Assembly: GCF_008122505.1 (NCBI RefSeq)
Contig: NZ_VSSB01000001.1
Location: forward strand, 790,891-854,890
Direction: 5' to 3'
DNA from: Agromyces mariniharenae
GTDB taxonomy: Bacteria > Actinomycetota > Actinomycetes > Actinomycetales > Microbacteriaceae
DNA length: 64,000 nt
The position numbers and the translations under genes are program-made. The notes beneath the pieces were generated by a model, which saw nothing but the letters and a program-made list of their open reading frames with translations, ran no database searches and was not told the DNA's origin. This document shows, one piece after another, positions 37,248 through 48,955 of this stretch. Numbering within the stretch: the stretch's first letter is position 1; every line of letters begins with the position of its first letter.

Positions 37248-39863
<2,616 letters not shown>

Positions 39864-39880
39864 CTAGTCCTCCTGGGGAA

Positions 39881-39901
39881 CTTGAGTTGGGTACGCTCAA
39901 G
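39881..39901. promoter_or_regulatory. HAIR element (HspR operator)
   Basis: CTTGAGT-N7-GCTCAAG matches the HspR-associated inverted repeat CTTGAGT-N7-ACTCAAG with one mismatch. It lies 18 nt upstream of the clp start, in position to repress it. AACTTGAG...CTCAAGTT extends the dyad to 39879-39903. Confidence 0.85.
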
Positions 39902-39903
39902 TT

Positions 39904-40234
39904 CAACGCGGTGGGGGCGTGGGTATTCCCGCGATTGGACTCGTTATTCAGACGAGGCGGACCACAAATCGCGACCACCTGAGCTTGCGACACCTGGCGG
40001 AAGACTACGTGGCGATGTCTGGCGTCAACTCCGGCAACCACGTAGCCAGCCGACTGCCCGGGCCGACCGGCTTGCGAACGTCCGATGACGGACCCTCGCG
40101 AGACGTCCGTACCTCCAGCTGGTTGACGAGCGGGCGGCTGAACCCGATCACTACGCCGGCGGGCCGGCCGGGATTCGTGTCGTCACCGAAAGTGAGCGGA
40201 CCTTCCCGGGGCTACGGAAATCCGGCTCTTCGTT
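39904..40234. other. Non-coding gap between clp promoter and ISL3 remnant
   Basis: No credible gene is visible. Short frames on both strands have no recognisable domain and no ribosome site. The last part (about 40200-40230, around GGCTCTTCG) may include the decayed end of the ISL3 element. Confidence 0.5.
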
Positions 40235-41100
40235 ATGAAGCGGGGCGCGGGTCTGGTTCGCCAGGGCTTGTGCCTGCCAGCGGCGAGCAGGATGCGTAGT
40301 TGGTGGAGTTGGGAAACGGTGCGCGAGCCTGAGGATCTTCTCGACGATGAGGTCGATGGCCTCGGTGCCGCCGTTGTTGGCCCCGCCGGTGTCGAAGTAG
40401 GCCAGGAACTGGGTCCGCCAAGCCCGCAGGCTCCGGCCGAGCCGGGCGACCTCGTGTACAGGGAAGGTGTGGAACGACTCGAGGATCTTCTCCGCGTCCC
40501 CTCGCCCGTCGACAGGCTGGTCGTGGCGGTAGACCGCACGGAGCTGCCGGTAGCACTGCCCGCGACGGTGACGTGCCAGTCCGGTCACCCGAGTGCAGGA
40601 ACGCGTCGATCTTCGCGAGCTGCCGTTCAGTCAGGTGCCCGATACCGTGCCTCAGCAACCCGCGGATCCTGCACAGCGGGTCGTCCGTGTGCGCCGCGTG
40701 TCCCAACGTTTGCTGCTGCATGCGTTGACGGGCCTTCGCGAGCACCTTCACGCTGAGCCGGACCACTTGGAACGCGCCCAGCACGACGACAGCGTCGGGC
40801 AGCTCGTCCCGGTCCCGGATCGCATTCGCGTACCCGCGGAACGGATCCAGCGCAGCATGCTAGACGGCTGGCGTGAAGCCTGCGGGCGCGCTGCGAAGCC
40901 ACGCCGCGTACGCGCTACCGGACCGGCCGGGCACCACATCCAGCAACCTCGCCCCGGACCCGCCCGTCGCCATCGTGTGTCAGGCCCACCATCGAGGTGA
41001 CCGCCCGGTCTTGGCCACGACGGGACGGCTTCCAGATGTGCTCGTCCAGCGTCTTGTACGGTATGCCCAATGCTCGATGCCGTGTTGGGTGCACCGGCAC
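40235..41100 (-). pseudogene. ISL3-family transposase remnant
   Basis: Fragments of one protein occur in several frames on the minus strand: IPYKTLDEHIWKPSRRGQDR and TSMVGLTHDGDGRVRGEV near 40915-41100, then FQVVRLSVKVLAKARQRMQQ and QTLGHAAHTDDPLCRIRGLL (about 40570-40780), then LRAWRTQFLAYFDTGGANNG and GTEAIDLIVEKILRLAHRF (about 40300-40450). Together they match the catalytic and C-terminal parts of ISL3 transposases (the DDE core and the TGGxxNGGTEAIN motif). The N-terminal zinc-ribbon/HTH is missing and at least two frameshifts separate the parts. It borders the low-GC island at its left edge. Confidence 0.85.
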
Positions 41101-41128
41101 GAGTCATGGCAGCGACTTTGGGGGACGG

Positions 41129-42688
41129 ATGAAGTATCGGAACGCCACCCATGCATTTGTTTCCGAGCTGGCTCAGTTACGAGAACGTGGACAAGTCGTC
41201 GAAGTGCGCGGGGCTACCACTACGGAGTTACTGAGCCGTCTTGTTGTTCTGGAACGGCCGACGGAACGATTCATCACCGTTCCGGGTCGCCGCAACGATC
41301 CCTGGGCCACCGTAGCTGAGACAATGTGGGTAATTGCTGGCCGTGAAGATGTGGCCTATCTCGAACGTTATCTGCCGCGCGCCCCGGACTATTCGGACGA
41401 TGGGCAGGTTTGGCGAGGTGCGTATGGACCTCGCATCCGCGATTGGGCCGGAACTGACCAAGTGGATGAGGTCCGGCAACTCTTGCTCAATGACCCGCTG
41501 ACGCGGCGTGCTGTAATCAACATCTTCGACCCCGCCCGTGACTTTATCGAGACTCGCGACGTTCCTTGCAACAACTGGATTCATTTCATCCAGCGGGACG
41601 GGCGCCTCGACATGAACGTGGCGATTCGATCGAACGACATCGTGTGGGGATTCTCGGGAATTAACACGTTTGAATGGAGTGTCCTCCACGAGATGATGGC
41701 CTACTGGACGGGCTTTGGCGTCGGCCATTGCTCGTACTTCATTTCGTCACTTCATTTCTACAATGATCGGCTGAATCAGGTGGATCGAACGCTGTCTGGC
41801 TTTTCCGGAGGGTCTGGTTACGAAGCGGGATGGGTCGCTCCGTCATTTATCACGGCTTGGGAAGATTTCCCAATGGTCATGCAGGAGTGGTTTCGGATCG
41901 AGCATGAGCTCGCGAGCGGGGCCGACGCTGCCGCAGCGATCACCCAGTTTCCGGACCCACTGCTGAGGCATTTCCTCGAGCTGCTGCGCATCAAGTGGCT
42001 TCAGCGAGGTGACGTCAACGACGGAGCCCTGATGACGGAGGTCGAGAATCTCGGCCGAACCGACGGCGCGTTCGCCCTCCGCGAGTTGTTGTTTCGCGAC
42101 TCTGCGTTGATCGCCAATGCAGGAACAGCCCACGGGGCTGACGAGCTGCGTGACGATATCTCCAGGCTCCACCGCATGAAGGACGCTGCATACGGTGACG
42201 CTTGGAAGCGGCGCGGCGAGCTGATCAGCATCGCGTCAAACTTGGCCAGGAAGGCCGATCGAATCGGGAGCGTAACTGCCGGTGCTCCCGCAGGCTCAGA
42301 GTCGTTGCTCGATACGGCCGTCGACCTGCTTGTCTACGCTCTAAAGTATCAGCTCTTCATCATGGAGCATGATTCAGAGCTGGCGGCCCACACACTCGGG
42401 ACGTCAGGGCTTCCGTTCAGTGACGGCACTCGGTGGTTCGACGCCCTGCTCTGGCACCTCGATTTCGATGTGCAGGTTGGGAGCGTCGAGCAAGAGGCTG
42501 TACAAACGGTCACAGCGTTCAATCGACTTGACGAGCTGCTTCAAGACACACCCGAAGGACCGTGGGCGACCAAGCAGGTCCTTGCCGAGCACCTGACGGT
42601 GAGCGCATTGCGGTTGGTCCATGCCGTCGCCGCCGTCGATTGGGGTGCCCGCTCGGCGCTTCGCCGCGAGGCAAGGGGCGAGCGATGA
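41129..42688 (+). CDS. Thymidylate synthase-like enzyme fused to Nmad1 (DUF1599) domain
   Basis: The 519-residue protein starts at the ATG at 41129 after GGGGGACGG. Residues 1-250 are a thymidylate synthase fold: catalytic C147 in DVPCNNWIHF, RSND at 167-170, N179 in GINTFEWSVL (the position that selects uracil over cytosine in TS), and SLHFY at 207-211. Residues about 345-415 (KDAAYGDAWKRR, then SLLDTAVDLLVYALKYQLF) match Nmad1/DUF1599, an all-alpha domain linked to nucleotide modification systems. So it probably adds a one-carbon group to a dUMP-like base and does not replace housekeeping ThyA. It overlaps the next gene by 4 nt. Confidence 0.78.
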   Translation: MKYRNATHAFVSELAQLRERGQVVEVRGATTTELLSRLVVLERPTERFITVPGRRNDPWATVAETMWVIAGREDVAYLERYLPRAPDYSDDGQVWRGAYGPRIRDWAGTDQVDEVRQLLLNDPLTRRAVINIFDPARDFIETRDVPCNNWIHFIQRDGRLDMNVAIRSNDIVWGFSGINTFEWSVLHEMMAYWTGFGVGHCSYFISSLHFYNDRLNQVDRTLSGFSGGSGYEAGWVAPSFITAWEDFPMVMQEWFRIEHELASGADAAAAITQFPDPLLRHFLELLRIKWLQRGDVNDGALMTEVENLGRTDGAFALRELLFRDSALIANAGTAHGADELRDDISRLHRMKDAAYGDAWKRRGELISIASNLARKADRIGSVTAGAPAGSESLLDTAVDLLVYALKYQLFIMEHDSELAAHTLGTSGLPFSDGTRWFDALLWHLDFDVQVGSVEQEAVQTVTAFNRLDELLQDTPEGPWATKQVLAEHLTVSALRLVHAVAAVDWGARSALRREARGER

Positions 42689-43635
42689 ACGATACGAGCG
42701 CCAAACTCCTGGACGATGTCGCCGCGCTGGTCGAGGGCGGCGAGACATCGTTTGGTCTCGTCGGCGACGCGACCATCTCTCTTCCGGTGTCGAGGTGGTT
42801 TCGTGAGAACGCACCCGGCTGCTCACTCGACGCCTTCGGCCTCGCAGCCGCAACCGCTCTGGGTTTGGCGTCTCACCGGTACGCGGAGCTTGAGGTCATC
42901 CGACCAGCGAACCTCATCGTCGCGGCCGATGCAGACAAGGAGCTGGTGATCCGACACTGCCTCCCGTTCATCGACTACGTCCCCCGACTGCTTGTGGCGG
43001 GCTATGGTCACTACCAATTCCACGACCAGCGTTTCGAGGCGATCCGATCAAGCCTGATGGTACCTTCGCTCGCGAACGGCTACCCGAACACACTCGTGCA
43101 CCTTTACCAGTGCATGGTGAATGCTGCACGCCTCGGTCTACAGGGCTCGGTCGTCGAGTTCGGTACGTACAAGGGCGGGACAACACGATTCCTCGCTGAA
43201 ACAGTCCGCGAGCTCCACCAGCAATGGCGCGTGGTCAGCCTCGACAGCTTCGACGGCTTTCCACCGCGGCGCTCGCCACTCGACATGTACGACCATCCAG
43301 GGGCAGAGTTCCGCGACCTCGCGGCGGTTGAGCGCTATCTTGAGTCCTGTGGCGTCGACCTCCTCGCCGGAGACATCGTCCTCACGGCCCGCCAAGTGGC
43401 CGGGCGGCCGGTGGTGCTCGCCTTCATCGACACCGACAACTACAGCGCTGCGACCGCGGCACTGGACGCCATACAGGATCACGTCGTACCCGGAGGCGCG
43501 ATCGTCTTCGATCATTTCACTGGCGTCGACCGCTTCCGATACACCCTCGGCGAGAGAATGGCCGCGGCGCGATTACTTGACGATTCACGCTATTTCAATT
43601 TGCACGCAACAGGCGTATTTCATAGGCAGAAGTAA
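42685..43635 (+). CDS. TylF/MycF-type SAM-dependent methyltransferase
   Basis: The 316-residue protein has an unassigned N-terminal region (1-120), then a class I methyltransferase of the TylF group: VVEFGTYKGGTTRFLAETVR (158-177), VSLDSFDGFPPRRSPLDMYD, VLAFIDTDNYSAATAALD and VPGGAIVFDHF. TylF enzymes methylate sugar hydroxyls and need Mg2+ (the D pairs are visible). Here it is translationally coupled (ATGA) to the TS-Nmad1 gene, so the substrate may be a modified nucleoside or a group attached to it. Codon use is more A/T-rich than the flanking chromosome. Confidence 0.78.
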   Translation: MNDTSAKLLDDVAALVEGGETSFGLVGDATISLPVSRWFRENAPGCSLDAFGLAAATALGLASHRYAELEVIRPANLIVAADADKELVIRHCLPFIDYVPRLLVAGYGHYQFHDQRFEAIRSSLMVPSLANGYPNTLVHLYQCMVNAARLGLQGSVVEFGTYKGGTTRFLAETVRELHQQWRVVSLDSFDGFPPRRSPLDMYDHPGAEFRDLAAVERYLESCGVDLLAGDIVLTARQVAGRPVVLAFIDTDNYSAATAALDAIQDHVVPGGAIVFDHFTGVDRFRYTLGERMAAARLLDDSRYFNLHATGVFHRQK

Positions 43636-43652
43636 ACGGAGATCCACATAGA

Positions 43653-44666
43653 ATGGCAAAGCCAAAGCCAAGACCAGGCGTGTACGATCTATATTGGCAG
43701 TTTGCGGCACGCAGGCAGCACGCATTCGAGTCGCGAATCGCAGGAAATCCTTGGCCCTGGACGTCGGATCCAATCTTGCGCGCGTACAAATTCTGCAACG
43801 TTTTCCGGGCCGCGGATCGCGTTAGTCAGTACATGATTCGAAATGTTGCATATCGCGATGACGATTCGTCAGCACAGGATCGGTTATTTCAGATCGTTGC
43901 CTTCCGAACCTTTAGCAATATCGCGACGTGGGAGTACGTGACCACTTGGCTGGAGCATTCCCCGCGCATTGACGACCTCGGTTCGGGTCAGTTTGAGGCT
44001 GCGCTCAATGCAGCACTCGAGGCCAATGGCGGCCTATACACCGGGGCGTTCATTCTCTGCGCGACTAATGCCTACGGTAGGTCCCGCAAACACCTCAACC
44101 ATGTAGAGCTCTTCCGCGACATGTTCGTGAAGCGTGACTTGGGAACGAAACTGCTCACGGCGACCTCCCTTCGAGAAATTTACGATCGTCTTCACACCTT
44201 TCCCCTCATGGGCGATTTCATGTCATACCAGACGGCAATCGATCTGAACTACTCCGACTACATCAACTTCTCAGAGGACGACTTCACGCAACCTGGGCCA
44301 GGCGCTGTTCGCGGTATCAAGAAGGTCTTCACCGACTTGGACGGGCTATCCCCGCAAGAGGTGATCATGTGGATGGTTGATCACCAGGAGGAAGAGTTCG
44401 AACGTCTCGGTCTGGAGTTCAATGGCCTCTGGGGGCGCCGGCTGCATGCCATCGACGCGCAGGGCCTCTTCTGCGAGACAGACAAGTACTGTCGCGAGGC
44501 CGTGCCAGAGCTCCGGAGTGCTCGCTCCCGCATAAAAGCGCGATTCGTGGAGTCCCCTGCCCCGATTGAGCTCTTTTTCCCACCCAAGTGGGGTCTCAAC
44601 AAACTGGTTCCGCGACAGCCTGTGCTCGGGAGCTCACGGCCGGACGCACTCATTCCGATGTTCTAG
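43653..44666 (+). CDS. HMUDK_hel / aGPT-Pplase-type base hypermodification protein
   Basis: The 337-residue protein matches the helical domain family described for 5-hmdU DNA kinases and alpha-glutamyl/putrescinyl-thymine pyrophosphorylases. Visible features are FAARRQHAFESRIAGNPWPW, TSDPILRAYKFCNVFRAADR, VSQYMIRN, then LNYSDYINFSEDDF, GPGAVRGIKKVF and FCETDKY. In phages such proteins act after a TS-like hydroxymethylase to activate or replace 5-hydroxymethyl-pyrimidines in DNA. Family assignment is from motif memory. GGAG lies 9 nt upstream. The gene ends 11 nt before a 35-bp palindrome. Confidence 0.75.
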   Translation: MAKPKPRPGVYDLYWQFAARRQHAFESRIAGNPWPWTSDPILRAYKFCNVFRAADRVSQYMIRNVAYRDDDSSAQDRLFQIVAFRTFSNIATWEYVTTWLEHSPRIDDLGSGQFEAALNAALEANGGLYTGAFILCATNAYGRSRKHLNHVELFRDMFVKRDLGTKLLTATSLREIYDRLHTFPLMGDFMSYQTAIDLNYSDYINFSEDDFTQPGPGAVRGIKKVFTDLDGLSPQEVIMWMVDHQEEEFERLGLEFNGLWGRRLHAIDAQGLFCETDKYCREAVPELRSARSRIKARFVESPAPIELFFPPKWGLNKLVPRQPVLGSSRPDALIPMF

Positions 44667-44677
44667 GTCCGGAGGGT

Positions 44678-44712
44678 TGACATCAGTGTCGGATTATCCG
44701 ACACTGATGTCA
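44678..44712. promoter_or_regulatory. 35-bp palindrome overlapping the ACP start codon
   Basis: TGACATCAGTGTCGGA (44678-44693) is perfectly mirrored by TCCGACACTGATGTCA (44697-44712) around TTA. The last base is the A of the ACP ATG. As DNA it could be the operator of the cluster's XRE repressor; as RNA it would make a 16-bp hairpin hiding the start codon. GGAGGG (44671-44676) precedes it. Confidence 0.85.
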
Positions 44713-44715
44713 TGA
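44686..44715 (+). other. Possible 9-codon leader peptide inside the palindrome
   Basis: GTG at 44686, 9 nt after GGAGGG, opens a frame VSDYPTLMS that ends in TGA at 44713-44715, overlapping the ACP ATG (ATGA). Translating it would open the hairpin and couple ribosomes into ACP. This is a suggestion from layout only. Confidence 0.35.
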
Positions 44716-45113
44716 CAGGTGAAGCCCAGAACGAGGGTCTGTTCCCTGCGGTGGCGGACATCGGATCCCCAACTCGCTCTCAGTCGTTTGACGCGCTGGG
44801 GGCACCTCTTTCGCCTGAAGCTGCACTTGCAATGACGTCTGGCGAGGTCGAGTCCGCTGTCGCGAATGTGCTCGCAGATCTCGACGGCATTGACTCTGGC
44901 ACCTTCTTCGCTGAAGCCTCTCGCACGCCCCGTGGGGACGTGGTGCTTGATTCTCCCCAGGCGGTCTTTGTGATCGCGAGGTTCAACCGGGTCTTCGGCA
45001 AGAAGAAGCTGATCAAGCTGTCGACAGTCACGGAGACCGACTGGTCGACACTCCATGCTCTTGTCGCCGTCTTAGTGCAAGCGCTGTTGGCACGACGAAA
45101 GGTTGCGGCATGA
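44712..45113 (+). CDS. Acyl/peptidyl carrier protein
   Basis: The 133-residue protein has an extra N-terminal 40 residues, then a carrier-protein four-helix core. The phosphopantetheine site is D80-S81 in GDVVLDSPQAVFVIARFN, followed by FGKKKLIKLSTVTETDWSTLHALVAVL, typical of ACP helix III/IV. An AcpS-type transferase is encoded two genes downstream, which supports the call. No ketosynthase, AT or adenylation gene is present, so the thing loaded is unknown. It overlaps the next gene by 4 nt and starts at the palindrome. Confidence 0.72.
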   Translation: MTGEAQNEGLFPAVADIGSPTRSQSFDALGAPLSPEAALAMTSGEVESAVANVLADLDGIDSGTFFAEASRTPRGDVVLDSPQAVFVIARFNRVFGKKKLIKLSTVTETDWSTLHALVAVLVQALLARRKVAA

Positions 45114-45994
45114 CCCTCTCGCTCGGCACCTGGCCGTCAATCGAGGAGGCGTGGTGGCAGACAACGTCAGGTCTTCTTTCGATGCCCGATGGACGTGCCG
45201 TGAACACAGTCGTCACAGTCGACCGACCTTCACTGGAGGTCGCGACGTCTTTCGTCGAACCGATCGACCTGATGCTTACCAGCCATGGCAGGCAACCGAT
45301 TCGCACCGTGGCAAACACGCTCTTTCCGAGTCGCCTCTATAGGAGCCCAGGCTTCACATGGCAGCCAGACTCGGACGAGAAGACCGCTGCGCTCGACGCA
45401 GCGGCCGACAAACTCTACGGCAACTATCTCGCGATGCTCCCGACCCTTATGACTGACCGACTCAACGCATCCGGCACCTACTTCAGTCGGATGATCGCAT
45501 GGCCCGGAAAGGAGGTAACGGGCGGCGTCAACCAGTTAGCGAAACGTATTCACTACCTTCGGGCCGTGAAGGGCCGCGCCCACAACGCGAGCGATGTGAC
45601 GCTCCAATCGCCTGACGACGTCGACGCTCTTTCACCGCTGCCGATTCAGGAGTACGCCGCAACCGACGATCGACAGCTCTCGTTCCCGTGTTTGGTGCAT
45701 GTGTCGCTGACAACGCTTCACGGCCGGCTCTCAATGGTGGCCGTGTATCGGCACTGGTTCGTGATCACGCGCGGGTTCGGCAACCTGGTGGGACTGAGCC
45801 GTCTGCTGCACTTCTTGGCAGAACAATCGGGCTACGCAGTCGGTGAGCTCATGATCGTTGCAACCAAGGGAAGCGCTGAGCGATCCCCCTATCGAGTGGA
45901 AGGGATCAAGCAGCTGCTCACGACCACGCGCGATCTGCTGGGCGCCCCTCCTGTTGCCAGCGATGCCAACGCTCCCGAGAAGGTGCCAGTATGA
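45110..45994 (+). CDS. Second thymidylate-synthase-like protein
   Basis: The 294-residue protein has TVANTLFPSRLY (67-78), SGTYFSRMIAWPG (121-133), a TS-type cysteine in FPCLVHVSL (C194), R214 in AVYRHW and FGNLVGLSRLL (N225) followed by GYAVGELMIVATKG. The order and spacing follow the thymidylate synthase core (Cys, RxD, N, then vGEl). The Arg-Ser-x-Asp phosphate motif is altered and the N-terminal substrate loop is short, so the substrate may not be free dUMP. Coupled by ATGA overlaps to both ACP and AcpS, it may act on a carrier-bound molecule. Confidence is in the fold, not the reaction. Confidence 0.62.
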   Translation: MTLSLGTWPSIEEAWWQTTSGLLSMPDGRAVNTVVTVDRPSLEVATSFVEPIDLMLTSHGRQPIRTVANTLFPSRLYRSPGFTWQPDSDEKTAALDAAADKLYGNYLAMLPTLMTDRLNASGTYFSRMIAWPGKEVTGGVNQLAKRIHYLRAVKGRAHNASDVTLQSPDDVDALSPLPIQEYAATDDRQLSFPCLVHVSLTTLHGRLSMVAVYRHWFVITRGFGNLVGLSRLLHFLAEQSGYAVGELMIVATKGSAERSPYRVEGIKQLLTTTRDLLGAPPVASDANAPEKVPV

Positions 45995-46368
45995 CCCTCC
46001 GCGTCCACGTTGGAACCGATCTCGTCACGATCTCTCGCATCGACGCAATGACCGTGAAGGGTGGCCGGGACTGGCTCGAGTCGATTTGGACCGCCCAGGA
46101 GCTCGCGTACTCTGAGTTGAGGCCCGACCGCTTGGCGACGCGCTGGGCGGCTAAGGAAGCCACAATCAAGGCACTTGGGCTGGGCATCGGGAGAATCGAG
46201 CCGATCGATATCGAGATCGTCTCGACTTCCGGCGCGGCGCCGTCGTTGAGACTTTCAGCCTCCGCTGAGCGGCGCGCGTCGGAGATGAAGGTGACATCGA
46301 TGTCCGTGTCACTCAGTCATGAACGCGACCTTGCGCTCGCGTATGTTGCACTTCTCGCAGAGGAATAG
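45991..46368 (+). CDS. AcpS-type 4'-phosphopantetheinyl transferase
   Basis: The 125-residue protein has the AcpS signature: VGTDLV (D10), then WTAQELAYSELRPDRLATRWAAKEATIKALG, with E56 in the WAAKEA motif, and VSLSHERDLALAYV at the end. These bind Mg2+ and coenzyme A. It should activate the ACP encoded just upstream by transferring phosphopantetheine to S81. Its start overlaps the TS-like stop (ATGA). A dedicated, non-housekeeping AcpS is the best evidence that the cluster's ACP is functional. Confidence 0.85.
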   Translation: MTLRVHVGTDLVTISRIDAMTVKGGRDWLESIWTAQELAYSELRPDRLATRWAAKEATIKALGLGIGRIEPIDIEIVSTSGAAPSLRLSASAERRASEMKVTSMSVSLSHERDLALAYVALLAEE

Positions 46369-46370
46369 AA

Positions 46371-46736
46371 ATGCCCACTCCATCCTCACAACCAGATGAC
46401 GAGCTCGTCGCGCTGGGAACGCGCCTCCGCGATGCGCGTGAAACGATCGGCTTTACGCAATCTGAGGTCAGCGGGGCGATCGGCATCCCGCGAACAAGCG
46501 TTCTTGCGATCGAGGCTGGCAAGCGAAACGTGACAACCGCCGAGCTCAAGAAATTCGCACGCTTGTACCGCCGGAGCATCGAATGGTTGCTCGGGGAAGC
46601 TGAGCCCGACCTCTCTTCGAACGTGGCACTCTTCCGGGCCACAGATGCACTGTCCCCTCGAGACCGAGAACAGGTCCTTCGCTTCGCTGAGTTCCTTGCG
46701 TCCGGCAGGCCACCCGAAGACTCAGGTGCCTCGTAA
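46371..46736 (+). CDS. XRE-family repressor
   Basis: The 121-residue protein has an HTH (about 12-70; LGTRLRDARETIGFTQSEVSGAIGIPRTSVLAIEAGKRNVTTAELKKFARLY) and a C-terminal helix. XRE next to ImmA is the classical pair in which ImmA cleaves or inactivates the repressor. The 35-bp palindrome at 44678 is a plausible target. It begins 2 nt after AcpS and overlaps ImmA by 1 nt (TAATG). Confidence 0.88.
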   Translation: MPTPSSQPDDELVALGTRLRDARETIGFTQSEVSGAIGIPRTSVLAIEAGKRNVTTAELKKFARLYRRSIEWLLGEAEPDLSSNVALFRATDALSPRDREQVLRFAEFLASGRPPEDSGAS

Positions 46737-47887
46737 TGCGACGCCGGGAAGGACGACTTGATGCGATGCAGGCGGCGGCGGACGCGCTGCAGGACCTGGA
46801 CATCGACCAGACGCGTCCGGTCGACCCTTTTGATGCAGTGGCTCGCCTCGACCTCGAGTTGCTCTTCGCACCTCTCGACAATTTGCTCGGCGCGATCGTT
46901 CCCAGTCCGACCATGTCTGCAGCTTCAGGCGTCTTGATCACGACCGAACGGCAGGCATCAATCCAGCGATACACCGCGGCTCACGAAATCGGCCATTGGT
47001 ACCTCGACCAGGATTACCTCGCGGTCGACATACAGGTCGACACGCAAGACGAGGTGGTCGGCATTCCATCGAACGAAAGGGAGCGCCGGGCACAACTTTT
47101 CGCGTCGTACTTTCTCATGCCGCTCCCGCTCGTCAGTCGAACGGCCAGGCGCCACGGCCTCCGCCGCGGCGACGAAGCAACGGCGGTCCAGGCGTACGCG
47201 ATCGCCCGGGATATGCATGTGAGCTTTGAAGCGGCTACCCGACAGCTTTACAACTGTGGCTTCATCCTGGATTCAAACGTGAGATCGCTGCTGAAGTCTC
47301 GACCAATCAGCGTCAAAAGCGAGCTCGCCCTCGGGCATCGGCCGACCGAAGCTCGCGGCGATGTCTGGACGGTGGCCGGCGAAGACCCGCCGGCCGAGCT
47401 CGAGGTGTTCGAGGGTGACGATGTGGTGGTTTCACTTCCCGAGAACCGGACCACAGGGTACAGATGGCTGTCGGCCGACAAGACAGACCCCGCCCGTAGG
47501 CCTGCACGACCCGCACCGCCCAGTTTCGGCGGAACGGAGGGGGAACTGGACACAGCCTCGGACCGTGTCGATCGCCAAGAGCTCGTCCCCCGACCCGAGC
47601 TCGAGACTTCGCTCCCGCTTGTTTACGACGATTTCCAGCTCAGTTCCTCCGCTGGGCCGGCGGACGCCGGTCTACCGGTGGGAGGTGGCGGCAACCGGTA
47701 CCTCATCCTCTATGCTCAGGCTCCTGGGGTTTGGGAGGAGCACTTCCAATACGCCTCTCCCTTCCGTCCTGATTCGGAACCGATCGATGACGTACGGCTT
47801 CGATTCGCTGTGCGCCCGAAACCAGCGGTCGAAACTCGGCAACGATGGTTGGACGAATTCAAGCGTGCCCCGGACTTCAATGACTAG
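46736..47887 (+). CDS. ImmA/IrrE metallopeptidase fused to chagasin-type inhibitor
   Basis: The 383-residue protein has an N-terminal ImmA domain with zinc motif HEIGH (H83, E84, H87) and a downstream acidic ligand near NERERRAQLFASYFLMP. From about 207 a second domain has the chagasin (MEROPS I42) hallmark NRTTGYRW (237-244), the glycine loop GGGGNRYLILY and a C-terminal strand RLRFAV. Chagasins bind papain-like proteases with this NPTTGYxW loop. The next gene is a papain-like protease, overlapping by 8 nt. So this chain likely joins an XRE-inactivating peptidase and an inhibitor of its neighbour. Confidence 0.78.
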   Translation: MRRREGRLDAMQAAADALQDLDIDQTRPVDPFDAVARLDLELLFAPLDNLLGAIVPSPTMSAASGVLITTERQASIQRYTAAHEIGHWYLDQDYLAVDIQVDTQDEVVGIPSNERERRAQLFASYFLMPLPLVSRTARRHGLRRGDEATAVQAYAIARDMHVSFEAATRQLYNCGFILDSNVRSLLKSRPISVKSELALGHRPTEARGDVWTVAGEDPPAELEVFEGDDVVVSLPENRTTGYRWLSADKTDPARRPARPAPPSFGGTEGELDTASDRVDRQELVPRPELETSLPLVYDDFQLSSSAGPADAGLPVGGGGNRYLILYAQAPGVWEEHFQYASPFRPDSEPIDDVRLRFAVRPKPAVETRQRWLDEFKRAPDFND

Positions 47888-48602
47888 ACCGAATATCGAC
47901 CTTCGTGAGCGTCTTGCGCCCGGCATTCACGACCAAGGCCCAAGACCAACCTGCGTGCCCTTCGCGGTCTCATTGGCACACGAGTCGAATCGTTATCAGG
48001 CGCGGGACCCCGCCGCCGCGCTCGCGCCTGAGGCGATTTGGGAGCACGCCTGGAATCGCGGTCTCGCTGGGCACAACGGCATGGACCTAGCGCACGCCAA
48101 CGACGCACTGCGAGAGCGCGGTCAGCCAGAGGACCAGAATTGGCCTTACGATGCGACACTCGGCTCAGATACCGAGCCGCCGCCCCTAAGTGCCGGAGTA
48201 CCACCGTGGCACGTCGCAGAGCTCAGCACCATTCCTCTGGCCTTGGATGGCGTCGAGGACGCCGTCGAGGATTCGATAGCGGCGGGCCGAGTGGTGGTCC
48301 TCGTTCTCGGCGTAACGGCTGCATTCGACTACCCGGACGCGGATGGGCTGATCCTTCCTTCGCCGGGGCCTGGGCACCGAGGGCTACACGCGGTCGCAGC
48401 AGTCGGTGCTGCTGAAGTCGCGGGCTCCGGCCGATGCCTGTTGATCCAGAACAGCTGGGGGGAGGGTTGGGGCCTCGGGGGCTACGGCTGGCTTCACCCC
48501 TCCTACATTCAGGGTCTGGGAATCTCCGCACATGAAGTTCTCCGACTCCCCATGCGCACACCTGTCCGCACGGACGTGACCACGGTGACCCGCGCGCGCT
48601 AG
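47880..48602 (+). CDS. Papain-like (C1) cysteine peptidase
   Basis: The 240-residue protein starts with the mature fold and has no signal peptide or propeptide. The tetrad is intact: Q19 and C25 in DQGPRPTCVPFA, H170 in GHRGLHAVAAVG, N191 in LLIQNSWGEGWG. It should be an active cytoplasmic endopeptidase unless inhibited. The ATG overlaps the ImmA-chagasin stop by 8 nt, so inhibitor and protease are made together. The substrate is unknown; candidates are phage or host proteins. Confidence 0.85.
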   Translation: MTRPNIDLRERLAPGIHDQGPRPTCVPFAVSLAHESNRYQARDPAAALAPEAIWEHAWNRGLAGHNGMDLAHANDALRERGQPEDQNWPYDATLGSDTEPPPLSAGVPPWHVAELSTIPLALDGVEDAVEDSIAAGRVVVLVLGVTAAFDYPDADGLILPSPGPGHRGLHAVAAVGAAEVAGSGRCLLIQNSWGEGWGLGGYGWLHPSYIQGLGISAHEVLRLPMRTPVRTDVTTVTRAR

Positions 48603-48670
48603 CTAGCGGGAGTCGTTCCTGCTGGCGCGGATCGTCCTCCAGAAGCAACCCGCAGCGCTCCCATCGCAAT

Positions 48671-48862
48671 ATGTGCTGTCATGCACTTTGCTCAGCCAGT
48701 TCTTTGGACCGCCGCAACGGATGGTCGGAACAGACCTTCAAGTTCTTGGACGAGCGTGACCAATGGATGCCACTAGTCACGGTCTGTACCCAGTGCGGCA
48801 CCAAGCGGGCTCGCCCTGGCGAAGTGAAGAGGACGTGGGCTGAGCTGATGGAGATGGACTAG
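48671..48862 (+). CDS. Small putative zinc-ribbon-like protein (63 aa)
   Basis: The frame from the ATG at 48671 contains N-terminal cysteines (C2, C3, C7) and a CxxC near the end (VTVCTQCGTKRARPGE). That could be half a zinc ribbon. There is no good ribosome site and the product is short. The surrounding 353 bases hold nothing else. I list it as tentative. Confidence 0.4.
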   Translation: MCCHALCSASSLDRRNGWSEQTFKFLDERDQWMPLVTVCTQCGTKRARPGEVKRTWAELMEMD

Positions 48863-48897
48863 CTGCGCATTCACGGTCTACCCCGAACCTACCCGAG

Positions 48898-48918
48898 CGA
48901 TATATCGTTGATATATCG
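48898..48918. promoter_or_regulatory. PadR operator, two GATATATC palindromes
   Basis: CGATATATCG (48898-48907) is a perfect palindrome and GATATATC recurs at 48910-48917, giving two sites one turn apart. They lie 38 nt upstream of the padR start, fitting autoregulation. Confidence 0.65.
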
Positions 48919-48955
48919 TCGAGACCCGACCAGGGCCCGCTTCAGGGAGGTCATC

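What the first reader, a model, noticed from the sequence alone, without database searches (positions are those of the whole stretch)
41129..48602. Nine-gene base-modification and protease cluster in a low-GC island
Seen: nine codirectional genes with seven of eight junctions at overlap or near-zero spacing. Order: TS-Nmad1, TylF methyltransferase, HMUDK_hel/aGPT-Pplase-type protein, ACP, second TS-like, AcpS, XRE, ImmA-chagasin, C1 peptidase. Established: TS-like, Nmad1 and HMUDK_hel/aGPT-Pplase families belong to pyrimidine hypermodification in phage and bacterial DNA. Inference: a uracil/thymine-derived base or nucleotide is built with help of a carrier-bound group and then methylated, and the XRE-ImmA-peptidase arm adds regulation or an effector. 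I know of no described system with this exact set, but I cannot search.
Basis: partly seen in the sequence, partly recalled or inferred. Interest (0 to 1): 0.95.

Follow-up and report, generated by a model that had tools for sequence, protein, structure and literature searches.

The report
Protease-locked nucleotide-modifying defence gene cassette
Nine bacterial genes combine two swappable modules, one of them also present in archaea, that likely make an unusual pyrimidine building block with the help of a carrier protein and are predicted to release a locked protease when a virus or foreign DNA arrives.

Summary
In detail: nine codirectional genes, 60.7% GC in 71.0% surroundings, seven of eight junctions within 17 bp. 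One other genome (probably Leifsonia) has all nine in the same order. The cluster is two modules. Module A (TS1–TylF–HMUDK_hel) also occurs beside TIR genes; cousins sit beside TIR and SLATT genes. Module B (carrier protein ACP, second TS-like enzyme TS2, phosphopantetheinyl transferase, XRE, ImmA-chagasin, C1 peptidase) recurs, with few gaps, in 35 fetched genome loci and, variably, on plasmids of Proteobacteria, cyanobacteria and a haloarchaeon; TS2 had no match in 50,697 phage records. New: a palindromic operator before the ACP gene, shared across phyla and unique in this genome; TS2 keeps the Cys, Arg and Asn of thymidylate synthase but never the folate Asp (0 of 51); the chagasin domain is found in 42 of 42 examined loci with C1 and is absent or degenerate in 4 of 4 without it. 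Best reading, inferred: an inducible, protease-gated, carrier-protein-dependent pyrimidine-modification defence. Thymidylate synthase and 5-hydroxymethyluracil kinase domains were recently reported in E. coli anti-phage systems.

The parts
41129..42688 (+). TS1: thymidylate-synthase/nucleotide 5-hydroxymethylase-like domain fused to a C-terminal Nmad1-like domain (519 aa)
   Evidence: PF00303 1.5e-19; best PDB relative MilA CMP 5-hydroxymethylase 1.3e-28 against 4.7e-13 for the best thymidylate synthase; C147, D170 in 18 of 19 rows and R167, N179 in 19 of 19; PF07659 in 8 of 54 members at E up to 5
42685..43635 (+). TylF-type SAM-dependent O-methyltransferase
   Evidence: PF13578 1.2e-11, PF05711 3e-10; same position in L053 and L085
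43653..44666 (+). HMUDK_hel: helical domain of 5-hmdU DNA kinase / aGPT-PPlase family; no other Pfam domain found
   Evidence: PF18723 8.6e-96; matched in 431 of 50,697 phage records, one of the listed ones annotated alpha-glutamyl/putrescinyl thymine pyrophosphorylase clade 1
44679..44711 (.). Operator (predicted): perfect 16-bp inverted repeat with 1-bp spacer, core TGTCGGATTATCCGACA at 44687-44703, ending at the ACP start codon
   Evidence: only site with up to 2 mismatches in the 4.08-Mb genome; site with up to 3 mismatches upstream of the ACP gene in 35 of 43 loci
44712..45113 (+). ACP: dedicated carrier protein, predicted 4'-phosphopantetheine on Ser81
   Evidence: Ser invariant in 31 of 31 aligned; PDB profile search returns mostly carrier proteins; no single-sequence Pfam hit
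45110..45994 (+). TS2: thymidylate-synthase-superfamily protein with C194, R214, N225 but no Asp at the folate-Asp position
   Evidence: TIGR03283 1.7e-9; hhalign to ThyA E 2.4e-8; residue counts in 51 sequences
45991..46368 (+). AcpS-type phosphopantetheinyl transferase
   Evidence: PF01648 7.4e-14; D10, K55, E56 in 37 of 37; the genome has a second AcpS match over cut-off elsewhere
46371..46736 (+). XRE repressor, CapH-like
   Evidence: PF01381 2.2e-11; PADLOC capH 5.6e-15
46736..47887 (+). ImmA/IrrE zinc peptidase (CapP-like) fused to a chagasin-type (I42) cysteine-peptidase inhibitor domain
   Evidence: PF06114 3e-8, PF09394 5.2e-9; PADLOC capP 7.4e-21; M78 in 43 of 43 and I42 in 41 of 43 members, window included
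47880..48602 (+). C1 (papain-family) cysteine peptidase with Cys25, His170, Asn191
   Evidence: PF00112 1.2e-5; these residues in 36 of 36; their roles are recalled

Best explanation
The nine genes are two exchangeable modules joined in one cassette, a predicted pyrimidine-modifying module (TS1–TylF–HMUDK_hel) and a carrier-protein/protease module (ACP–TS2–AcpS–XRE–ImmA/chagasin–C1), which together likely work as an inducible, protease-gated defence against phages or other invading DNA. Shown: the gene order, its conservation, the conserved palindrome, the residues and the change of partners. Inferred steps follow. (1) At rest the XRE protein sits on TGTCGGAWWATCCGACA and represses the ACP-led operon, while the chagasin domain of ImmA blocks the C1 peptidase. 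(2) A signal of invasion or DNA damage activates the zinc site of ImmA, which cuts XRE, as reported for CapP/CapH (recalled), so the operon is induced and the C1 peptidase is freed. (3) AcpS arms the ACP with phosphopantetheine. TS2 uses its Cys to activate C5 of a uracil nucleotide and takes the carbon group from the carrier protein instead of methylene-folate. (4) TS1 makes a 5-hydroxymethyl-uracil nucleotide, HMUDK_hel exchanges the activated group on the base, and TylF methylates the product. (5) The modified nucleotide poisons phage DNA synthesis or acts as a signal, and the freed peptidase stops the infected cell.
For: Module B is conserved as a unit: of the 35 genome loci, TS2 is in 35, ACP 34, phosphopantetheinyl transferase 34, XRE 34, ImmA 34, C1 33 and HMUDK_hel 31 (several misses are on cut contigs). 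The palindrome precedes the ACP gene in 35 of 43 loci with up to 3 mismatches (16 exact), with 3 such sites elsewhere in 0.8 Mb, one of them just upstream of the core of L017, and is the only site with up to 2 mismatches in this genome. XRE and ImmA match CapH and CapP. C1 and chagasin go together: 42 of 42 examined loci with C1 have the domain by my profile (Pfam 41 of 43 members); of 4 loci without C1, L057 and L080 have no Pfam I42 and only a remnant, and L086 and L088 none by my profile. TS2 keeps C194, R214, N225 in 51 of 51 and has Tyr, His, Phe or Leu, never Asp, where ThyA has its folate Asp; its gene overlaps that of the ACP. In Paenibacillus L039 the AcpS is replaced by a longer, Sfp-like transferase. 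Module A or cousins sit beside ThsB-type TIR, SLATT (L056) and Nmad2 genes. Flanks hold ThsB, HmaC, GajB, a DRT-associated helicase model and a type I methyltransferase. The PMC13092281 text lists a thymidylate synthase and a 5-hydroxymethyluracil kinase among domains newly validated as anti-phage in E. coli.
Against: No phage assay, no nucleoside analysis and no known inducer. No enzyme that would load an acyl or aminoacyl group on the ACP was recognised in the nine genes, so the carried group is unknown. Module A is not constant: 23 of 35 loci have MazG and no TS1, and 5 of 8 plasmid loci have an annotated uracil-DNA glycosylase and no HMUDK_hel, so one product for all is doubtful. Four loci lack C1, so the peptidase is not indispensable. 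With my own profile a weak chagasin signal remains in L057 (9e-4) and L080 (7e-8, profile trained with L080). ACP-like ORFs of L086 and L088 were not matched by my ACP profile. The loci were found through TS2, which inflates conservation of its neighbours, and the profiles and the palindrome consensus came from the same loci. The flank scan had no control set. The ACP and TS2 folds were not modelled.
Confidence: 0.5

Rival explanations
1. Self-marking DNA hypermodification: the enzymes place a modified thymine in the host's own DNA and the cassette is a modification system without a classical nuclease.
For: HMUDK_hel matches proteins of phages, one of them annotated as a thymine pyrophosphorylase; TS1 keeps the residues of a uracil-nucleotide hydroxymethylase (roles recalled).
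Against: No restriction nuclease family in the nine proteins. Module B has a repressor-type palindrome, unlike a constitutive marker. Annotated UDG stands in place of HMUDK_hel in 5 of 8 plasmid loci, which would remove rather than keep a uracil-type base.
Confidence: 0.15
2. Counter-hypermodification: the enzymes recognise and destroy modified thymidine nucleotides or bases made by phages with hypermodified DNA (pyrophosphatase, HMUDK_hel or UDG), and the protease arm kills the cell on recognition.
For: MazG, Nmad1-like, dCTP deaminase and UDG parts are nucleotide- or base-removing types; UDG and HMUDK_hel were not found together in the 8 plasmid loci (profiles).
Against: Two synthase-like enzymes, an ACP and its transferase are biosynthetic parts that a pure removal system would not need.
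Confidence: 0.15
3. Nucleoside natural-product cluster: a uracil nucleoside is hydroxymethylated, acylated from a carrier protein and O-methylated to give a secreted antibiotic.
For: TS1 is closest in the PDB to MilA (its nucleoside-antibiotic pathway is recalled); TylF and ACP/AcpS are common in natural-product clusters (recalled).
Against: No exporter, NRPS/PKS or resistance family among the nine proteins; the XRE-ImmA-chagasin-C1 arm is a near-constant partner; neighbours include immune genes.
Confidence: 0.08
4. Addiction unit: the C1 peptidase is a toxin, ImmA-chagasin its antidote and XRE the autorepressor, kept by mobile elements, with the nucleotide enzymes as passengers.
For: TS2 is on 22 plasmid records; the palindrome fits autoregulation; inhibitor and peptidase occur together.
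Against: ACP and TS2 are as constant as the peptidase. Cassettes without C1 persist with XRE, ImmA and TS2 and an ACP-like ORF (L080, L086, L088; in L086 and L088 the ACP is by eye only).
Confidence: 0.12

Closest known systems
Thymidylate synthase and 5-hydroxymethyluracil kinase domains newly validated as anti-phage in E. coli (DefensePredictor, PMC13092281; section 5 and passages seen, figures not held)
   Same: Thymidylate synthase and 5-hmdU kinase (HMUDK) domains; the Fig. 3 legend text also spells out dNMP kinase and NMAD, and our relatives have TMK-like genes
   Different: Main text does not mention acyl carrier, chagasin or papain; ACP, AcpS, TS2, chagasin and C1 are extra here. Which domains share a system there, and in what order, could not be seen.
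CapH/CapP regulatory pair of CBASS and other immune operons (function recalled)
   Same: XRE repressor gene followed by a zinc peptidase gene; PADLOC capH 5.6e-15, capP 7.4e-21
   Different: ImmA here carries a chagasin inhibitor domain and is followed by a C1 peptidase; no CD-NTase among the nine genes; ssDNA response untested
Phage thymine hypermodification pathways (aGPT-PPlase; pathway details recalled)
   Same: HMUDK_hel/aGPT-PPlase family, in some listed Pseudomonas phages under or beside an annotated thymidylate synthase, and a TS-family hydroxymethylase-like enzyme
   Different: Cellular and plasmid-borne; TS2 has no match in 50,697 phage records; no kinase domain recognised on HMUDK_hel in the window; ACP and protease arm absent from the phage pathways (recalled)
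MilA CMP 5-hydroxymethylase (PDB 5b6d)
   Same: Closest solved relative of TS1, 1.3e-28
   Different: Asn179 in TS1 is the uracil-type residue (recalled); TS1 is fused to an Nmad1-like domain
Chagasin (I42) inhibitors and papain-family peptidases
   Same: I42 profile and C1 residues
   Different: The inhibitor is part of a zinc peptidase with which the C1 gene travels

Membership tests
Thymidylate synthase (ThyA), for TS2 | Catalytic Cys, phosphate-binding Arg and uracil-binding Asn | tested here: met
   C194, R214, N225 in 51 of 51, aligned to ThyA by hhalign; the roles of the residues are recalled
Thymidylate synthase (ThyA), for TS2 | Folate-binding Asp after the Arg (QRSxD motif, recalled) | tested here: not met
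   Position F217 is Y20, H17, F12, L2, D0 of 51. TS2 is not filed as a thymidylate synthase.
Uracil-nucleotide hydroxymethylase/TS, for TS1 | Cys, Arg, Asp and Asn of the active site | tested here: met
   C147 18, R167 19, D170 18, N179 19 of 19 rows; one row, from L057, is a suspected false hit
Acyl carrier protein | Phosphopantetheine Ser in a DSL-like motif | tested here: met
   Ser invariant in 31 of 31 (L013, L014, L015, L017 were not given, L035 lacks the gene); D-S seen in 8 of 8 plasmid homologues, of which my profile matched 5 at E below 0.1
Acyl carrier protein | Carrier-protein fold | tested here: inconclusive
   Profile A3 finds 25 PDB sequences at E up to 10, 19 named carrier proteins and 3 PKS/NRPS, best 1.5e-3; PP-binding Pfam in 1 of 31 members; modelling unavailable
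CapH/CapP regulatory pair | XRE repressor plus HExxH zinc peptidase in one operon | tested here: met
   H83 43, E84 42, H87 43 of 43
CapH/CapP regulatory pair | ssDNA-triggered cleavage of the repressor | not testable with these tools
   Needs biochemistry
Chagasin-type inhibitor with C1 target | I42 domain in the protein next to a C1 peptidase with its triad | tested here: met
   I42 Pfam in 41 of 43, own leave-one-out profile 42 of 43; C1 residues 36 of 36
Phage thymine hypermodification pathway | HMUDK_hel fused to a P-loop kinase (recalled) | tested here: not met
   Window protein is 337 aa with HMUDK_hel only; a separate TMK-like gene exists in 19 of 35 relatives, none among the nine genes
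Phage thymine hypermodification pathway | Hypermodified thymine in DNA | not testable with these tools
   Needs LC-MS
Restriction-modification system | Restriction nuclease in the cluster | tested here: not met
   No nuclease family in the nine proteins
TS/5hmdU-kinase defence (PMC13092281) | Anti-phage activity | not testable with these tools
   Needs plating assay

The most novel reading that the evidence does not exclude
This is the first immune system built on a carrier protein: TS2, a thymidylate synthase relative that has lost its folate Asp, takes its carbon group from a phosphopantetheine-bound donor on a dedicated ACP and adds it to C5 of a uracil nucleotide, while a papain-like executioner peptidase is held shut by an inhibitor domain welded to the metallopeptidase that senses infection. 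The core spans Bacteria and Archaea and accepts different nucleotide modules (TS1, MazG, thymidylate-kinase-like, HMUDK_hel or UDG).
Probability: 0.3. Interest if true: 0.95.

Novelty: new variant of a known kind. Interest (0 to 1): 0.86.

Why it matters
If right, it links three fields that did not meet in the papers searched here: carrier-protein chemistry, thymidylate synthase enzymology and protease-gated immunity. It would give a folate-free route to a C5-modified pyrimidine, a metallopeptidase with a built-in lock for a papain-like peptidase, and a sequence-defined operator (TGTCGGAWWATCCGACA) that makes induction directly testable. It also offers the TS and 5hmdU-kinase domains recently validated in E. 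coli a set of partner modules whose change (TIR, SLATT, or ACP/TS2/C1) suggests that their product is read by, or feeds, different effectors.

Tried and rejected
A phage origin was considered and set aside: TS2 gave no match in 50,697 phage records and no confirmed relative in the viral contigs, although HMUDK_hel is common in phages.

The idea that all nine genes are always one unit was rejected: only L053 showed the full nine-gene order among the loci examined; TylF and the Nmad1-like part had no profile match in the 35 genome-contig loci (stretches of up to 20.8 kb).

Strict exclusion of TS1 and MazG was considered: 0 of 35 loci have both (8 TS1, 23 MazG, Fisher p 2.1e-5 without correction for relatedness), but the Sinorhizobium fredii plasmid L086 has both, so it is a tendency.

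TS1 matches in L007 at 16412 and L057 at 8229 were judged false profile hits: the L007 protein is a Metallophos protein, and the L057 protein is taken as its counterpart by length. The L057 row was still among the 19 rows. The L032 hit lay between 1e-3 and 1e-6 and was not counted.

Profile comparison of TS2 with the TS1 family was weak (probability 7.4, E 0.0047); with ThyA it was clear (95.3, 2.4e-8). The TS2 profile found no PDB sequence at 1e-3.

ORFs of the ClpC-PadR interval of the genus were listed for a defence scan but not scanned. No promoter scan was run. Two papers that may describe parts of this (NAR 2015 gkv1267 as PMC4678834, and gkt573, recalled) are not held, so novelty is bounded by that.


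Full report
What is there. Nine + strand genes fill 41129-48602. The cluster is 60.7% GC against 71.0% for the rest of the window, and the junctions are -4, 17, 45, -4, -4, 2, -1 and -8 bp. Pfam, NCBIfam and PADLOC give: TS1 (PF00303), TylF, HMUDK_hel (8.6e-96), no single-sequence hit for the ACP-like protein, TS2 (TIGR03283 1.7e-9, below cut-off), AcpS, XRE (capH 5.6e-15), ImmA (M78, capP 7.4e-21) with an I42 chagasin domain, and a C1 peptidase. PHROGs link TS1 to phage thymidylate synthases (2.3e-67). The genome has another PP-binding match, a second AcpS match and a strong ThyA match elsewhere, so these are extra copies. The genus is probably Agromyces: genome G012, of the same genus, has a contig of the length of an Agromyces bauzanensis contig; this is inference.

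Distribution. A 51-sequence TS2 alignment found 35 loci in the genome collection, mostly Actinobacteria, also MAGs labelled Chloroflexi, Verrucomicrobiales and Planctomycetaceae, and one Paenibacillus. It found no confirmed relative in viral contigs, and TS2 had no match in 50,697 phage records. In the window's family 3 of 398 genomes have TS2 at 1e-15; 4 of 199 relatives have HMUDK_hel at 1e-3; 10 of 396 genomes of the order have a TS1 match at 1e-20. Each of these counts includes this genome. TS2 is on 22 plasmid records and HMUDK_hel on 21. The window's HMUDK_hel is 63.7% identical to copies on two rhizobial plasmids but 44-45% to those in two species of its own genus. This is the pattern of a rare, moving cassette. 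Transposition (TniA/TniB-like), integrase and relaxase families occur near some loci.

Conserved module B. With profiles built from these loci, the 35 loci hold TS2 35, ACP 34, phosphopantetheinyl transferase 34, XRE 34, ImmA 34, C1 33, HMUDK_hel 31, MazG 23, TMK-like 19 and TS1 8 (TS1 at 1e-6, the others at 1e-3). Misses include contigs cut at an end (L025, L032, L035). Wherever the genes were called, the order ACP, TS2, AcpS, XRE, ImmA, C1 is the same in the 34 loci other than L039. I looked at 8 of the 22 plasmid records with TS2. On plasmids of Sphingobium, Sulfitobacter, Burkholderia, Bradyrhizobium, Sphingomonas, Rhizobium and Haloarcula the order is ACP-like, XRE, ImmA, C1, TS2, with UDG and/or MazG next to it, or in Haloarcula TMK, HMUDK_hel and a phosphopantetheinyl transferase. 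A Streptomyces plasmid has MazG, a gene annotated acyl carrier protein, XRE, ImmA, TS2 and HMUDK_hel, without C1. A Nostoc plasmid and a Sinorhizobium fredii plasmid, found through HMUDK_hel, also have XRE, ImmA, TS2 and MazG without C1. Selection through TS2 inflates these counts, and the profiles share their training loci.

The same nine genes elsewhere. Locus L053, from another genus of the family, has TS1-Nmad, TylF, HMUDK_hel, ACP, TS2, AcpS, XRE, ImmA, C1 in this order. Its contig length equals that of a Leifsonia sp. AK011 contig. Among the 120 listed TylF homologues at least 6 sit on contigs of the same length as TS2 hits and at least 6 as TS1-Nmad hits; this is a match by length only, counted by hand.

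Module A can change partner. I looked at 6 of the 21 plasmid records with HMUDK_hel by that search. On a Sinorhizobium chiapasense plasmid TS1-Nmad, TylF and HMUDK_hel stand together behind three genes annotated TIR and an Nmad2-like gene, without an annotated module B in the 17-kb stretch; two of the TIR genes and one unnamed neighbour match my ThsB-type profile. L054 has a ThsB-type TIR gene there (PF08937 3.3e-24) and L056 a SLATT_3/SLATT_1 protein; the TIR genes of L056 and L058 and the SLATT gene of L058 were matched by eye, and no SLATT gene was seen in L054. Of 284 flank ORFs listed, the nearest 124, from 39 loci, were scanned. PADLOC matches at 1e-8 include ThsB (5 members), HmaC (2e-291), GajB, a DRT-associated helicase model and a type I methyltransferase (25 of 163 families shown). 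No control set was scanned, so this is a description, not an enrichment test.

Operator. The only larger gap, before the ACP gene, is filled by a perfect 33-bp palindrome, 44679-44711. Its core TGTCGGAWWATCCGACA occurs once in the 4.08-Mb genome at up to 2 mismatches. In the window it is the only match at up to 3 mismatches, though 9 of 100 shuffles gave as many. Upstream of the ACP gene it is present with up to 3 mismatches in 35 of 43 loci, 16 exact, including plasmids of Sphingobium and Sphingomonas. Elsewhere in the same 0.8 Mb there are 3 such sites on the strand scanned, one of them just upstream of the core of L017. L014, L015, L037, L039, L078 and L079 lack it; L030 and L080 have 4 mismatches. 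The consensus was read from these same loci; its uniqueness in the genome is the independent test. I infer that the XRE protein binds it and that the ACP-led genes are separately induced.

The lock. ImmA carries M78 in 43 of 43 and I42 in 41 of 43 members, the window included. By leave-one-out profiles the C-terminal domain scores 33 bits or more in 42 of 43, L080 (4.6 bits) being the outlier. All 42 have a C1 gene. Four loci show no C1: L080 and L057, L086 and L088. L080 and L057 have no I42 by Pfam, while my profile still finds a remnant, 7e-8 with L080 in its own training set and 9e-4 for L057; L086 and L088 show none (Pfam not run on them). The C1 Cys, His and Asn are present in 36 of 36, and HExxH has H 43, E 42, H 43 of 43. 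An inhibitor that comes and goes with its target argues that it inhibits it; this is inference.

TS2 and the carrier protein. hhalign places TS2 on ThyA with E 2.4e-8. Cys194, Arg214 and Asn225 are invariant in 51 of 51, while the place of the folate Asp is Tyr 20, His 17, Phe 12, Leu 2. The roles of these residues in thymidylate synthase are recalled. TS1 in contrast keeps Cys, Arg, Asp and Asn and is closest to MilA in the PDB. The ACP Ser is invariant in 31 of 31. Its core profile returns 25 PDB sequences at E up to 10, 19 named carrier proteins and 3 PKS/NRPS, each at a weak E-value, best 1.5e-3; Pfam PP-binding matches 1 of 31 members. In Paenibacillus L039 the place of AcpS is taken by a longer transferase (PF01648 5.5e-11, 239 aa), Sfp-like from memory. 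Replacement of the arming enzyme by another type is good evidence that the arming matters. Together this suggests that TS2 takes its carbon from the carrier protein; nothing here shows it.

Literature. PMC13092281 (section 5 read in full, other passages and legend text seen, figures not held) reports 42 of 94 tested transcription units with an effect on phage in E. coli. It lists a 5-hydroxymethyluracil kinase and a thymidylate synthase among domains newly validated, and predicts MazG, MazG-C, aGPT-PPlase and a nucleotide modification associated domain as defensive. Passages of PMC10853773 and PMC7159879 were searched without finding such a set. Searches for the combination with acyl carrier protein, phosphopantetheinyl transferase or chagasin listed no paper that describes it, as far as listings and abstracts show. 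CapP/CapH function is recalled; one search shows listings. Two likely relevant papers were not held.

Verdict. A defence role is likely but untested; the chemistry is a proposal.

Noticed in passing
window 40151-41000, - strand: Overlapping minus-strand ORFs look to me like a broken ISL3-type transposase next to the island; the family is recalled and was not tested.
   Followed up: no
window 39864-48955, between ClpC (37248-39863, -) and PadR (48956, +): In the genus the ClpC-PadR interval varies: of 35 genomes that I listed by hand with strong hits to both on one contig (60 searched), 24, this one included, have them divergent and within 50 kb, 2.9 to 37.6 kb apart; it looks like a hotspot for variable genes. 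The names ClpC and PadR are recalled.
   Followed up: partly
L085, L090: HMUDK_hel stands beside ThsB-type TIR and Nmad2-like genes on Sinorhizobium and Parabacteroides plasmids, in L090 also beside a radical SAM gene: a possible separate immune type.
   Followed up: partly
L089: On an Erythrobacter aureus plasmid HMUDK_hel lies between DNA polymerase III epsilon and alpha genes, near a SAM methyltransferase, as if for a replicon with modified DNA.
   Followed up: no
L081 10873-11538, L086 3838-4623, L030 14561-15250: dCTP deaminase genes beside the cassette (annotated in L081 and L086; by eye in L030), which would feed a dUMP supply. L081 also has a Shedu nuclease gene nearby.
   Followed up: no
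L076, L077, L079, L081, L083: Annotated uracil-DNA glycosylase genes occupy the place of HMUDK_hel in 5 of 8 plasmid loci; Pfam UDG 3.4e-6 for L076, the only one tested.
   Followed up: partly
L007 16412-18589, L032 2-2338, L057 8229-10409: A protein of about 730-780 aa recurs next to the cassette (L007 and L032 in one cluster; L057 by length); PF00149 metallophosphoesterase for L007.
   Followed up: no
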